From assembly GCA_946699065.1 (NCBI GenBank), contig CAMPDV010000867.1, positions 108,750 to 172,749 of the forward strand: a stretch of 64,000 bases of DNA. Direction: 5' to 3'. Source of the DNA: Loxodes magnus. Its lineage: Eukaryota; Ciliophora; Karyorelictea; Loxodida; Loxodidae. Position numbers and translations under genes: made by a program. Positions 55,405 to 60,648 of the stretch are shown piece by piece. Each line of letters begins with the position of its first letter. The first letter of the stretch is position 1. The notes under the pieces were generated by a model. That model searched no databases. It was not told the DNA's origin and was given only the letters and a program-made list of their open reading frames with translations.

Positions 55405-58400
55405 TCACAAATCCTAATCTTTCTCTTTCATTTTTAGATCATTGCTTGACTCACTTTCTTCATAAAGCTTTATCACCTTATAAGGTCTTTTTTTTATAGC
55501 TGCGCTTTCTTTAAAATGCTAGTCTTTCTTCTTATTGCTTTTTTTCAATAATTTTTAAGAAAATGCTTACTTTTATATAAAATTTTTATCCAGTTCTTGG
55601 TTTTCTCTGCCCGTTGTTTTGATATTTTAGTTTAGATTCAATTCAATATTTTATAACTCTAAATTTTAATCTTTTTGTTCTTCTTCTTATTTAGAATTAT
55701 TTTATTTTGACGTATTTTCTTCCTTAACTGTAATATTCATAAAATTGTCTTCTTAATTCTATTCTTCTTCACTTTTTGACTCTTCATTCTTTTATTCTTC
55801 TTTTAAGTTTTTTTTTATTTACAAGATAAACTAATTATTTTAGTTTTCAAAGGTCTTCTATAAGTTTTCTTTAAATTAACTTAAGTAACTAAGATCTTGT
55901 ATTATTTGATTCAATCAATCGGTTCTCTTCTTATACTCTGGATTATTTTCTTGCTTATAGCTTGCTCTTAGATTTTTTGTCACTAAAATAAAAAATTACT
56001 ATTTTCAGTTATTTTCTCTTCTTTTTTCATTTTCTCACTTTCTTACTAATCCTAATTTTTTTTACCACAACTTGTTTTTTTCATTATAAATATATATTTT
56101 AACGAATAAACTATAAATATTAATATAATTATGGTGATCATCAGTATTCCTGATTTAAATAATGCCTTATCTGCTACTGAGTTATTTTAAGCGCATCTTT
56201 AAAAATTAGAAAAATAGCATTTTTTATCTTTCAAAGTCATTGCAAATTTGCAGTCTTGATACTCTTAAAGGCAATCATTATTGTTAAAGTTTGAATCGCA
56301 ATAATTATCTCCAATATTTTATATATTAAAATCTTTATTTAATTTTGAACAATTGCTTATTCTTTCTACTGAGGATGTAACACAATCATCTCCATCGTAA
56401 TCACATTCAGATATATTACATTGTTCATCACACACTCAGTCTCCAATTTAATGCCAATAGCATTCTTTTATTTCACAAAGCTTAATTTTTTCTATCTCTT
56501 TTTCGCAATCTTTCATATCATTTTTCGAATCGTATTTACAAAAATGATTAGCACAAATCTTATCACAAACTCCATCACCTATCCATTCTAATTAACATCC
56601 AATTTTGGAACAATATGAACAATCTCCCATATCATATAAGCATTCAGGAATATTACATTGTTCGTCACATTATCCATCTTTTAATCAGTAAACTTTGCAA
56701 CCATTTGATACACACAAATCTTTATTAAAATCTAATTATTTAGCTCTTTATGGACAATCACCTCCATCATACTCGCACTCAGGAACATTACAGGAGTCAT
56801 CACAATAGCCATCTTACACATATTAAATATAGCAATCTTTGCTGCATATATAATTATCACAGTCAGGTCAATCATATAGACAGTCAATATTCAAACATTC
56901 GACATTACAAATTCCATTATTCCTCAGATTTTTACTGCAAGTGCATTTATCTTCTTTACTTGGGGAACAATCATACCCGTCATAATTACAATCTTTATTA
57001 TAGCAATCATAATCACATATACCATCCATATTCCATTTTTTACAGGGATCTTTACATGATTAATTTTGATGTTGAATTACTTAATTTTAGCAGTCATTTT
57101 AATCATATTCACAATCTTTAACATAGCAAAAATAATCACATTAATCATTACCTATCTTGATTATATTACATCCAACTGAACATTCACAATCTCCTGAATC
57201 TCAGTTGCATTGTTCTTAGTTGCATTCTTAATTGCAAATCCCATTTCCAATTTCTGTGTAAATACAACCTTGTGAGCATAAGCATTTTTAATTATCATAT
57301 AAACAATTATAATTATCACATTCTTAATTGCATATATCATTTTTAAGCATTTATTAATTACATTTAGGTGCGCAGTTACACTGATAGTTATCATATTAGC
57401 AACTTATCGAATTACATTCTTAATCACATTTCTTATTATTAAGTTTTTCTTCGCTACATGGACATACGCAATCATTCTAATCGAATTAACATTCAGTTAC
57501 ATTACAGCTATAATCACATACTTAATCTCCTATTCAAGTTAAAGGACATCCTTCATTACACTCGCAATCTCCACCATCATAAGCACATATATCTATATTG
57601 CATTAAGTATCGCAAAATCCATCACCATTTCATTATTGATTACAATAATTAGAGCATTCACAGGCAAATCCATCAAGCAAACATTCATTAGAATAGCATT
57701 CACTGTCACATTCTTAATTGTATATTAATTATAAACTACAATCTTTAGGACAGATACAATCATTATAATCATATTTGCATTGTTCATTAAAGCATTCTAA
57801 ATTGCATTCTCCATTTTTTAAAAATCCTTTATAACAACCCTGTGCACATTCACAATCTTTCCAATCCTATTTACATCTTTAGTTATAACAATCTTAGTCG
57901 CAATTTCCATCGTCTTCTTTTGAATTGCACTCTTTTGGGCATTAGCAGTCGTTTTAATCGTAATTACATTATTTTATATTGCAGGCTATGTCACATTTTC
58001 CATCCTCTAATCATTTTATAGGGCATTCAGAAGAGCAAAAGCAGTCTCCTTAATCTCAGTTGTAATTCTCAAAGTTACATTCTAAATCGCAAGATTAATC
58101 TCCAATTTTAGTTAAGTCGCAGGCTTAAATATTGATGCATTCATAAGCATCATAAAAGCATTATGTAACATTGCAATCAAGATCACATTTTCCATTTTTA
58201 AGTTTATTTAGCTAGCATCCTTCTATATAACAGTCAAAAGCTGCAAATGAACAATCCAATTAATCAAAATAGCATGCTTCTACATAGCAATTAAAATCAC
58301 AAAAGCCGTCACCAATTCATGAATTTAGACAACCTTAATTGCATTTATCTTATAAGTTCCTCACAAGCAACAACTCTTTTTCTAAACCTTTACTTTATTA

Positions 58401-60648
58401 GTAATTGTATGAAAAGCAATCATCTTCAAATTAATTTCAGCAAGTATAATACTCTCTTGGAAAAATGTCTTTAGCTCCTAGCATAAATATTGAAAAAATA
58501 GCATGAGCTAGCAGAGCAAAAGGTATAACCTTTTGAAAAAGCAGATGTATTTAATTCGTAATCTTTAGAGGCTTCTTGTAGAAGTTAAAGAATAAGTATC
58601 TATCTAATAAATACTATACTAAAAGAGAAAAAAAACCGAAAATAATTAGTATTGGTATTCCAGCTGAGTATATCATAATTGTAAATATGATAGCCATCAT
58701 GAACGAGCTTTGCTCAACTACATTAAATTCAGGTCTTGTTATGACATAGTAATGAAGTTAATTTTTTTATTGCCTTTTATCATATCAATCAAAAAATTTC
58801 TTAAAAATTATCTTTTCAAAGGTAGGCCAAAAAATAGCTATGAATATACTTGTAGTAATCCCTCTTCCAATTTCTACATACCAGTCTCTTGTAAAGTCTC
58901 CGTGTGATTTCGTACTTGAAACAAAAATAGTAAAAGTTTAATTGAAAAACTGGAATAAAAACATCTTAAATCCGATACTAAGATCCGCTTCAACTTTATC
59001 TTGCTTTCTTTATCAATTGTTTAGTCTTTTTAAAGTTCGTACTATGAATCTATTGAAAAAAGTAACAACAACTCCTACTCCTATTAAAATGGCTCAATAT
59101 TTAATCAGTTCATTTTTATAATCTTAACAAATTTCTGCTTTTGTACTAACTTCATAAAATAAATCTACATTATTCATTTAGCCACACCAGCAATAATATC
59201 CCAAAGTATTTTATCTGCCTTAGTAAATCTAAGGTCCTTTTTCCTTTTCGAGATCCTGAAGCTTTTAATTTGTATTATAGAATAATTTTTCATTTACTCT
59301 TTTATAATACTATTCACATTAAAAGTCCGTAGGAAAATCATTGCTTTTGGCTTAATCTATTCCTCAAACGATAATTATTGTTATAGCAATTATAGCAGAT
59401 GAAATTAAAGTAACAGCTCAAGAGTACAGTTTTCCTTTTCAATATGATACTTCGAGATTTTCCCAAATGATAACTGAAGGATCTTTTGCTTCTTCAATGC
59501 ATAGAGGATATTTTTCATCTCATTTAAGCTTTCAGGACTAAAACCAAGTGAAAAATTTTGTTTTTCTATAATCTTTTACACATTTTATTTTATCCTATTT
59601 ATTTTTAAAAACGACGAATACTTTGACGATATCTTCAATTTTCTCCTTATTTTTCTTTTTAATCGCTAGATTTTCAATTTTATTTTTAATTTCCATTTTG
59701 AGTTCATTTAGTAACTTTTCATCTCTCTTTTTAAAATTAAGTTTAAGGATGTCCAAAAATCTTTTTAAGAAAGCATTTAATTTACTTCTTTTTAGATCAT
59801 CAAGCTGTTTTATTTCATCTTCGATATCTGCCAACTTATCAGAATATTATAAAAGATTGTGTTTAGCGTTTCCTATTACTACTTCATGCACTTCTCCATA
59901 TCTACTTTAGAAAAAATCTTTTATTTATTATTCATCTATTCCTTACTTTGGTAGCCCTCTTATCTAAATCGCGTAGTCACAGATGCTTTCTTCATCCTTA
60001 CTTATGATTTAATTAGTTCTTTTTCTATAAGCAATTAGAAAAATTAGAAAAACTAAGCTTTGGAAAAAATCTATAAGACCAATTTAAAGATTTCGTTTTC
60101 TAGTTCTGTCCAAAATATCATCTTCATAAGATTTCTATTGCTGATCTCTATCAAGAGATTTAAGTACGTTTTCGATATCTATATCATGATTTTTGTACCA
60201 TTAGTATTAATACTTGTCTTTATCAGCATTGTTCTTTATTTCTTTCGTTTAATTAAAAACCCAAAAATATTCAATACTATTCCCAGTATCTAAGTTCCCT
60301 ATATTATAGCTTTCGAGGATTCCACTTGTTGTTTTGCTAAAGAAACTTCCTTTATAATTGATTCAAATCTTTGGTATACTTAAAAGACTTATAACGAAAA
60401 AGGTTTAAAACAAGAAAGCGAGCTCAATCGAAATAAAGCTAAATTCCTACACCATGTTCTTTAAATTCGCTTCCTTTTGCTCTTTGTCAAAAGCAGAATC
60501 TCTTTTCTTTCTCTTGATTTTACTTATTTTAAACTTCCTAGTTCTTATTTTCTTCAGCTATAGTTTTTTTGGTTTGATTTTCCTTATCTAGTTACTAAAG
60601 TTTCATCTCTTCTTGAATTGGTGCCTCCTCTACCTCAGAGCTTTCCAT
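55405..60648 (-). CDS. OSCA/CSC1/TMEM63-like channel fused to about 20 Notch-type (LNR) repeats
   Basis: About 1,740 codons, start ATG 60648, stop TGA 55407-55405. The N-terminal half has the OSCA/CSC1 plan. It shows HGVGIQLYF with a first membrane region, a cytosolic RRM-like part (DYAIQIRGLP near residue 224, VFVVFKNK later), DPSVIIWENLEVS (near 394) before the pore-side spans, and a long polytopic region (RPEFNVVEQSSFMMAIIFTI, YSAGIPILIIFGF, VIPFALLAHAIFSIFML). From about residue 773 come 20 cysteine modules of the type GDGFCDxxCNxxxCxYDGGDC, as in Lin12/Notch repeats, which bind calcium in known proteins. One more span (GILMITIILIFIVYSL, about 1499) and a Glu/Lys/Ser-rich tail follow. A 17-nt intron lies at 55983-55999. 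A one-base frame change near 60.43 kb, between LYFDW and TFFVISLLSIPKI, is not explained by an evident intron. Confidence 0.85.
55983..55999 (-). other. 17-nt spliceosomal intron
   Basis: Minus strand GTAATTTTTTATTTTAG. Removing it joins ITENM to TKNLRASYKQENNPEYKKRT and keeps the tail in frame down to the TGA stop. Without removal the tail shifts out of its coding frame. Confidence 0.8.

What the first reader, a model, noticed from the sequence alone, without database searches (positions are those of the whole stretch)
55405..60648. Mechanosensitive-channel-like protein fused to a tandem array of about 20 Notch-type repeats
Seen: an OSCA/CSC1-like N-terminal half (RIRGLP-type RRM-like segment, IIWENL box, multi-span region) is followed in the same frame by about 20 Lin12/Notch-type modules, one more membrane span and an acidic/basic tail. 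Established: OSCA/CSC1/TMEM63 proteins are osmotically or mechanically gated cation channels, and LNR modules are small calcium-binding folds that in Notch act as a force-released clamp. Inference: a long tethered array on a stretch-gated channel could serve as an external spring, anchor or calcium sensor. I do not know of this domain pairing.
Basis: partly seen in the sequence, partly recalled or inferred. Interest (0 to 1): 0.8.

Follow-up and report, generated by a model that had tools for sequence, protein, structure and literature searches.

The report
Ciliate stretch-channel carrying Notch-repeat loop
A ciliate, most likely the gravity-sensing Loxodes magnus, has a large gene family in which a relative of stretch-gated ion channels carries a string of 3 to about 48 small Notch-type domains in a loop predicted to face outside the cell, a pairing we did not find in the papers we could search.

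Summary
On the minus strand of 55405-60648, read with TAA/TAG=Q and TGA=W, one open stretch (60398-55962) encodes a divergent TMEM63/OSCA-type channel, 19 LNR modules (plus one degenerate), a membrane span and the start of a charged tail. One main correction: this is not a channel with a tail fused to its end. LNR-free paralogues show that the array sits inside the loop between TM9 and TM10; the "one more span" is the channel's own TM10. By parity that loop faces outside or a lumen. Two searches of the same 706-Mb assembly list 124 places of the channel family, 16 of which seem to lack the array. The assembly size matches the published Loxodes magnus MAC assembly. In 14 translations searched with one LNR model, counts were 0 (3 proteins), 3, 6, 7 (4), 13, 19, 23, 32 and 48. 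Most paralogue pairs show purifying selection on channel and array. TM0 is missing. No transcript, structure or function was tested; the single-sequence fold was useless. Likeliest role: a calcium-stabilised outside domain that binds or is pulled and acts on the channel. A link to the statolith organelles of Loxodes is speculation. New variant of a known kind.

The parts
55405..60648 (-). whole gene, code TAA/TAG=Q, TGA=W, terminal TGA at 55405
   Evidence: translation
60400..60648 (-). N-terminal segment, predicted cytosolic, no TM0 (first frame); one-base frame change at its end
   Evidence: highest 19-residue hydropathy before TM1 is -0.39
60363..60425 (-). TM1 (spans the frame change; open straight through in copy L011)
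   Evidence: LYFxxxKxL motif shared with family, read by eye
60027..60083 (-). TM2
   Evidence: hydropathy
59457..59978 (-). cytosolic IL2 domain, PHM7_cyt / RRM-like
   Evidence: PHM7_cyt 19 bits (cut-off 27), E 0.0017, residues 141-314; 16 of 18 family members match at E<=0.01, best 3.4e-10
58458..59432 (-). TM3-TM9, RSN1_7TM-like region
   Evidence: RSN1_7TM 25.5 bits, E 1e-5, residues 521-641; TMEM63 matches; hydropathy, TM5 under threshold and TM7/TM8 not separated
58341..58442 (-). juxtamembrane linker after TM9 with conserved cysteine (YxTC...C)
   Evidence: C653 invariant in 18 of 18 rows
56382..58340 (-). array of 19 LNR modules, net charge -80, 17% Cys
   Evidence: own LNR HMM; Pfam; charge
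56250..56351 (-). degenerate 20th LNR-like module
   Evidence: read by eye; not found by the HMM
56073..56180 (-). pre-TM10 motif (DK....SG) and TM10
   Evidence: post-array HMM finds the same place in LNR-free L046 E 1.4e-9 and L055 0.0022, weakly L045 0.12; hydropathy
55976..56000 (-). second frame change (T-run, or 17-nt GT..AG intron candidate)
   Evidence: read; undecided
55405..55990 (-). hydrophilic tail, predicted cytosolic, mixed charge (net +1 over 191 residues)

Best explanation
A member of a branch of the OSCA/TMEM63 channel family, seen so far only in this assembly (no other ciliate could be searched). It lacks TM0, keeps TM1-TM10 and the cytosolic RRM-like IL2 domain, and carries an LNR array inserted in the TM9-TM10 loop, outside the cell or in an organelle lumen. 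Shown: the architecture, its presence in many paralogues, varying array length, purifying selection on both halves in most pairs tested. Inferred: LNR modules are disulfide-bonded, Ca2+-stabilised beads on a string, anchored at both ends to the channel; they bind a partner (matrix, prey, another cell, a cilium or an organelle content) and pass contact or pull to TM9/TM10, so changing the opening of a cation channel. Length would set reach or slack.
For: Profile match of the channel part to solved TMEM63 chains (CSC1-like 2 E 1.7e-8, TMEM63A 5.8e-7, 8k0b 1.8e-6) and plant ERD4 (0.013); PHM7_cyt in 16 of 18 and RSN1_7TM in 13 of 18 members at E<=0.01. LNR E 2.8e-84. LNR cores follow the channel in the same frame in 28 of 30 fetched paralogues; in the other 2 (L011, L014) the frame shifts inside the channel. 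LNR-free L045, L046, L055 have short TM9-TM10 loops, and the post-array segment is homologous to TM10 of L046 and L055. With L045 as query, 43 of 59 main matches stop at residues 705-709, at the conserved Cys 706 after TM9, and 16 of 59 run on through TM10 (3 of these 16 were read: L045, L046, L055, no LNR). Of the 43, 4 were read (C198, C451, C89, C47) and all 4 hold LNR modules there; 8 more (the 7 other C198 places and C7791) have a Pfam LNR match about 1.2 kb downstream on the same strand (lists compared). Ten spans with the N-terminus inside put that loop outside. dN/dS L051-L053: channel 0.20, array 0.24, TM10 region 0.15. No in-frame TGA between TM9 motif and the end of the first strict LNR core in 8 of 32 rows.
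Against: The window gene alone stays under both Pfam cut-offs for the channel. A designed membrane protein (6m6z) also scores E 7.9e-5 with the family profile and 0.017 with the single protein, so weak matches of this kind occur by membrane composition; the TMEM63 values are stronger. No RNA, no structure: the only fold had mean pLDDT 40.5. In 24 of 32 rows 1 to 4 TGA codons lie between TM9 motif and first strict core. The window's own close copies give weaker selection: dN/dS 0.47 and 0.51 in the channel against L012 and L013, on 22 and 23 changes. The linker of L051-L053 gives 1.05 on 6 changes, the TM10 region of L016-L018 0.87 on 4 changes. As recalled, the OSCA pore is built from TM3-TM7, so a pull on TM9-TM10 need not open it. 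Force gating, Ca2+ binding and ligand were not tested.
Confidence: 0.5

Rival explanations
1. The array is a recognition or adhesion repertoire (prey, self/non-self, surface) carried by a channel-derived membrane anchor; gating by the array plays no part.
For: 124 listed places (65 + 59 main; capped lists, duplicate contigs included, 16 of them probably without array), clusters (8 matches on C198; 7 on C43 and 13 on C76), array length 3-48 in the LNR genes counted, near-identical module copies in L023 and L029 (by eye). Other multi-LNR genes show no such channel in the 3-kb stretches read (L001, L003, L005, L008).
Against: In the paralogue pairs L051-L052, L051-L053, L016-L018, L016-L023, L023-L029 and L036-L037 the channel is under purifying selection (0.20-0.27), so it is still used. 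The membrane-proximal modules keep their order rather than diversify in 6 of 8 genes tested.
Confidence: 0.25
2. The array is a calcium (or barium/strontium) reservoir or sensor at the pore mouth: a strongly acidic string that concentrates divalent cations or reports their level.
For: Net charge -12.3 per 100 residues in the window array; -8.9 to -17.3 in the 10 arrays measured, -197 in all in L049.
Against: Such charge may be usual for LNR arrays (not tested); LNR sites bind one ion each in known structures (recalled); ligand residues were partly imposed by the search pattern.
Confidence: 0.12
3. The protein is mainly a lipid scramblase or organelle channel, with the array in an organelle lumen.
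For: TMEM16 and OSCA/TMEM63 belong to one superfamily and single TM4 changes turn OSCA1.2 or TMEM63A into scramblases (PMC11534332, passages); weak anoctamin-6 matches E 0.0047, Pfam Anoctamin in 2 of 18 members, best 7.4e-5.
Against: Best matches are TMEM63, not anoctamin; nothing in the sequence decides.
Confidence: 0.08
4. Two neighbouring genes, or a pseudogene, misread as one protein because the code has no dedicated stop.
For: Frame changes at both ends of the window gene; 1 to 4 TGA codons before the end of the first strict core in 24 of 32 rows; dN/dS 0.47-0.51 in the channel among the window's own copies.
Against: Same order and frame in 28 of 30 paralogues; 8 rows without any TGA there; TM10 completes the channel after the array; TM10 lies 2193-2197 bases after the channel match in all 6 close copies, by arithmetic; dN/dS 0.20-0.27 in other pairs.
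Confidence: 0.05

Closest known systems
TMEM63/OSCA/CSC1 channels (TMEM63A, CSC1-like protein 2 = TMEM63B as recalled, 8k0b = TMEM63C as recalled, plant ERD4)
   Same: IL2 RRM-like cytosolic domain, 7TM region, WENL box, order of spans; profile E 1.7e-8 to CSC1-like protein 2
   Different: TM0 missing; LNR array (3-48 modules in those counted) in the TM9-TM10 loop; window gene under Pfam cut-offs
Notch negative regulatory region (three LNRs, recalled)
   Same: LNR module and cysteine spacing; E 1.4e-5 to Notch1, 2.0e-5 to Notch2, 1.8e-5 to Notch3
   Different: 19 modules; no Notch heterodimerisation, EGF or ankyrin match in the Pfam scan; two membrane anchors, not one
GlcNAc-1-phosphotransferase alpha/beta LNR pair
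   Same: best LNR match among solved structures, E 1.2e-8
   Different: enzyme, not a channel
LNR-free paralogues in the same genome (L045 on C108, L046 on C39, L055 on C10)
   Same: same channel subfamily; TM10 homologous to the post-array span for L046 and L055, weakly for L045
   Different: short TM9-TM10 loop, 0 LNR modules
canonical OSCA-type genes in the same genome (L039-L043)
   Same: RSN1_7TM above cut-off
   Different: TM0 read by eye in L041; 0 strict LNR cores in the match frame of 5 of 5; separate clade 100/100

Membership tests
OSCA/TMEM63 | sequence profile of the family | tested here: met
   18-member profile vs PDB: 8ehx E 1.7e-8; single protein best 7.4e-5; an unrelated designed membrane protein reaches 7.9e-5 with the profile
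OSCA/TMEM63 | Pfam RSN1_7TM and PHM7_cyt above gathering cut-off, window gene | tested here: inconclusive
   25.5 of 28.7 bits and 19 of 27 bits; members matching at E<=0.01: 13 and 16 of 18
OSCA/TMEM63 | eleven spans TM0-TM10 (recalled) | tested here: not met
   TM0 absent; TM1-TM10 assigned by homology and hydropathy; hydropathy alone does not show TM5 and does not separate TM7 from TM8
OSCA/TMEM63 | stretch- or osmo-gated cation conduction | not testable with these tools
   needs electrophysiology
LNR (Notch repeat) modules | Pfam PF00066 above cut-off | tested here: met
   277.7 bits, cut-off 21.2, 18 stretches
LNR (Notch repeat) modules | Ca2+ ligand residues and disulfides | tested here: inconclusive
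   136 of 139 modules (8 proteins) with one spacing C-x3-C-x4-C-x6-C; last residue before the final Cys is D in 104 of 136; the search pattern itself asked for D or S at one site; binding not tested
Notch receptor | EGF repeats, heterodimerisation domain, ankyrin repeats (recalled) | tested here: not met
   on 60398-55962 only Notch(LNR) passes its cut-off; RSN1_7TM, DUF4064 and RRM_1 are listed under theirs at E<=1

The most novel reading that the evidence does not exclude
These are the missing force-gated channels of the Loxodes Mueller organelle, or of its mechanosensory cilia: LNR strings of graded length, fixed at both ends in TM9 and TM10 and able to hold divalent cations, link channel and statolith stalk or vesicle content, and length tunes the response.
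Probability: 0.05. Interest if true: 0.95.

Novelty: new variant of a known kind. Interest (0 to 1): 0.62.

Why it matters
TMEM63/OSCA channels are thought (recalled) to feel membrane tension directly. Here a whole family has taken up a long ectodomain in one loop, of a module type known from a force-opened switch, with array lengths from none to about 48 modules in one genome. That is a natural series for asking whether an ectodomain can tune such a channel. The host, if Loxodes magnus, belongs to a genus that is a classic single-cell gravity sensor; the passages I read (PMC5460273, PMC10954788) name no channel for its statolith organelle.

Tried and rejected
Rejected: fusion at the channel's end with an extra span. 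Not upheld: a single clean origin of the array. A first tree of 24 rows put the 16 LNR rows in one clade, 93/92; after adding 4 more LNR genes (28 rows, 20 LNR) the LNR label needs 3 changes and LNR and LNR-free rows mix, so one gain with losses or several gains both stand. For one gain: the window's second- and third-last of 19 modules match best, in 6 of 8 genes tested, a block 44-88 residues before the array end, in both LNR clades; L058 and L032 did not place clearly.

Led nowhere: single-sequence AlphaFold model, mean pLDDT 40.5, not used for fold search; viral contigs and genome-contig scans with the family profile, 47 and 31 pattern stretches, none confirmed; Rfam (gathering threshold) and bacterial-code tRNA scan of the window, nothing; tandem repeats at score 150, none; Pfam scan of 8 other long frames of the window at E<=0.001, nothing; papers holding both TMEM63 and LNR as whole words: 0; wider paper searches listed nothing on this pairing by title or abstract start; only listings were seen except for the four papers named in the report, of which I saw passages.

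dN/dS rows told but not relied on: window against L012/L013, channel 0.47/0.51 on 22/23 changes, array 0.43/0.44 and 'TM10' 0.56, the last two unsafe because those loci end before TM10 and the ends are misaligned; L016-L023 array 0.41 with dS 1.33 (different module numbers) and its 'TM10' 0.93; L016-L018 'TM10' 0.87, which does reach the start of TM10 but rests on 4 changes. Linker rows: 1.05 (L051-L053), 0.37 (L016-L023), 0.11 (L016-L018), 0.13 (L036-L037), the rest without synonymous change.

The 32 rows count the window place twice (WIN and L009).
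Full report
What the sequence shows. The gene lies on the minus strand. With TAA and TAG read as Q and TGA as W, one frame is open from 60398 to 55962, 1479 residues. It holds, in order, the rest of TM1, a cytosolic domain of about 175 residues with an IRGLP start, the WENL box, spans up to TM9, a cysteine array, one more span and the start of a hydrophilic tail. The ATG at 60648 and the last part of the tail to the TGA at 55405 are in other frames. 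The N-terminal change is a one-base difference in a short A-run: the C776 copy (L010, 5040 bases without mismatch and with 2 short gaps against the window copy) and L011 differ from the window there, and L011 is open straight through. The tail change lies in a T-run; L032 and L051 carry a similar FILV/FYLV stretch there (by eye), which speaks for coding sequence, but a 17-nt GT..AG stretch could also be an intron.

The organism. The window is part of contig C867 of an assembly of 705.7 Mb in 7843 contigs. The published L. magnus MAC assembly is 706 Mbp; the passages seen give introns of modal length 17 bp and context-dependent sense/stop codons with stop-UGA (PMC11441545, passages). I take the window to be L. 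magnus; this is an inference from size and code.

The channel part. Alone it matches CSC1-like protein 2 (TMEM63B, as recalled) at E 7.4e-5, RSN1_7TM at 25.5 bits and PHM7_cyt at 19 bits, both under their cut-offs. An alignment of 18 family members (16 with LNR, 2 without; mean column identity 46%) matches CSC1-like protein 2 at 1.7e-8, CSC1-like protein 1 / TMEM63A at 5.7e-7 to 5.9e-7, 8k0b at 1.8e-6, ERD4 at 0.013 and anoctamin-6 at 0.0047. A designed membrane protein at 7.9e-5 and RRM-type proteins from 0.0016 are in the same list; the first shows the level of noise, the second fits an RRM-like IL2. Pfam counts at E<=0.01: PHM7_cyt 16 of 18, RSN1_7TM 13, RRM_1 10, Anoctamin 2, and two stray families 1 each. 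TM0 is absent: before TM1 the highest 19-residue hydropathy is -0.39, while the canonical gene L041 has a clear TM0 (by eye).

The array. Pfam gives 18 LNR stretches, an own model 19 modules, with one more degenerate one read by eye. The own model was built from 139 strict cores of eight of these proteins (made the alignment, another the model), so it is not independent of them. Net charge is -80. Solved LNRs match: GlcNAc-1-phosphotransferase at E 1.2e-8, Notch chains from 1.4e-5.

Where the array sits. Two LNR-free relatives were found among RSN1_7TM matches (L045, L046) and a third by searching with L045 (L055). In them TM9 is followed by a loop of about 30-40 residues and TM10 (by eye). 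A model of the segment after the array, from 10 LNR genes, finds exactly that place in L046 (E 1.4e-9), L055 (0.0022) and, no better than noise, L045 (0.12), for a set of 8 proteins; in the five canonical genes the best score was 0.087 in L039. So the array is an insertion in the TM9-TM10 loop. Counting TM1 to TM10 with the N-terminus inside, that loop is outside or in a lumen, where disulfides can form.

The family. The window channel finds 65 places (the window included) and L045 finds 59 further main ones; the two lists share no contig. Both are lower bounds because only the best candidates are scored, and duplicate contigs or alleles are included. The 35 fetched channel segments (of 65) fall into 19 clusters at 97% and 13 at 90% DNA identity. 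Of the first 30, 28 carry LNR cores in the same frame directly after the channel and 2 are shifted inside the channel. Module counts in the 14 translations searched: window 19, L049 48, L050 32, L057 23, L056 13, L051, L052, L053 and L048 7 each, L058 6, L032 3, and 0 in L045, L046, L055. In the L045 search 16 of 59 main matches run through TM10 and 43 stop at residues 705-709, where Cys 706 follows TM9; 4 of the 43 were read and have LNRs, 8 more have a Pfam LNR match about 1.2 kb downstream, the other 31 were not looked at. The six close copies of the window gene all keep TM10 2193-2197 bases after the channel match.

Selection and one protein. L051 against L053: dN/dS 0.20 in the channel (663 codons), 0.24 in the array (274), 0.15 in the TM10 region (55), but 1.05 in the 45-codon linker on 6 changes. 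L051-L052, L016-L018, L023-L029 and L036-L037 give 0.21-0.27 for the channel and 0.18-0.29 for the array. Against this, the window's own copies L012 and L013 give 0.47 and 0.51 in the channel on 22 and 23 changes, and the TM10 start of L016-L018 gives 0.87 on 4 changes. Between the TM9 motif and the end of the first strict LNR core 8 of 32 rows hold no TGA, 24 hold 1 to 4. This is good but not RNA evidence for one protein.

Origin. Canonical genes form one clade (100/100). LNR and LNR-free genes of this branch are mixed once four further genes are added. The membrane-proximal modules are shared between the two LNR clades. One insertion, with growth at the TM9 side and later losses, is my preferred reading, not shown.

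How it may work. Shown: architecture. As recalled: OSCA/TMEM63 proteins are tension- or osmo-gated cation channels; LNRs in Notch hold Ca2+ and mask a cleavage site until pulled. Inferred: the array binds something outside, is stabilised by Ca2+ and acts on TM9/TM10. A repertoire of binding domains, or a cation reservoir, are the main rivals. Loxodes has Mueller organelles with a barium sulfate body on a ciliary stick, and breaking that link with a laser led to loss of gravitaxis (PMC5460273, passages); such vesicles are called unique to Loxodidae (PMC10954788, passages). The passages read name no channel for them. A link to this family is speculation, at 0.05.

Limits. No eukaryote protein collection could be searched, so 'new' rests on paper searches in an open-licence library only.

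Noticed in passing
L003 and L005 (G000 contig C143), also L001, L008 (C1023): Other genes with long LNR arrays and no channel in the 3-kb stretches read; L003/L005 run into a stretch that resembles a PA14-type domain (recalled resemblance, not scanned).
   Followed up: no
G000 contig C198, 208447-326602: Eight matches of the second LNR-channel clade, six of them at about 11-kb steps: a tandem array of whole genes.
   Followed up: partly
L023 and L029 (contig C43): Runs of nearly identical LNR modules, a sign of recent module duplication within the array.
   Followed up: no
window about 60400 and copies L010-L014: Close copies differ by short frame-shifting gaps at different places (window N-term; L011 and L014 in the channel; the L012/L013 matches begin only at residue 202); assembly error or decay not decided.
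   Followed up: partly
window 56001-60000: Strongest GC skew among the 2-kb steps of the window (-0.385 and -0.214 on the + strand), over the array and channel.
   Followed up: no
L039-L043: Canonical OSCA-type genes in the same genome, RSN1_7TM up to E 4.9e-29.
   Followed up: partly
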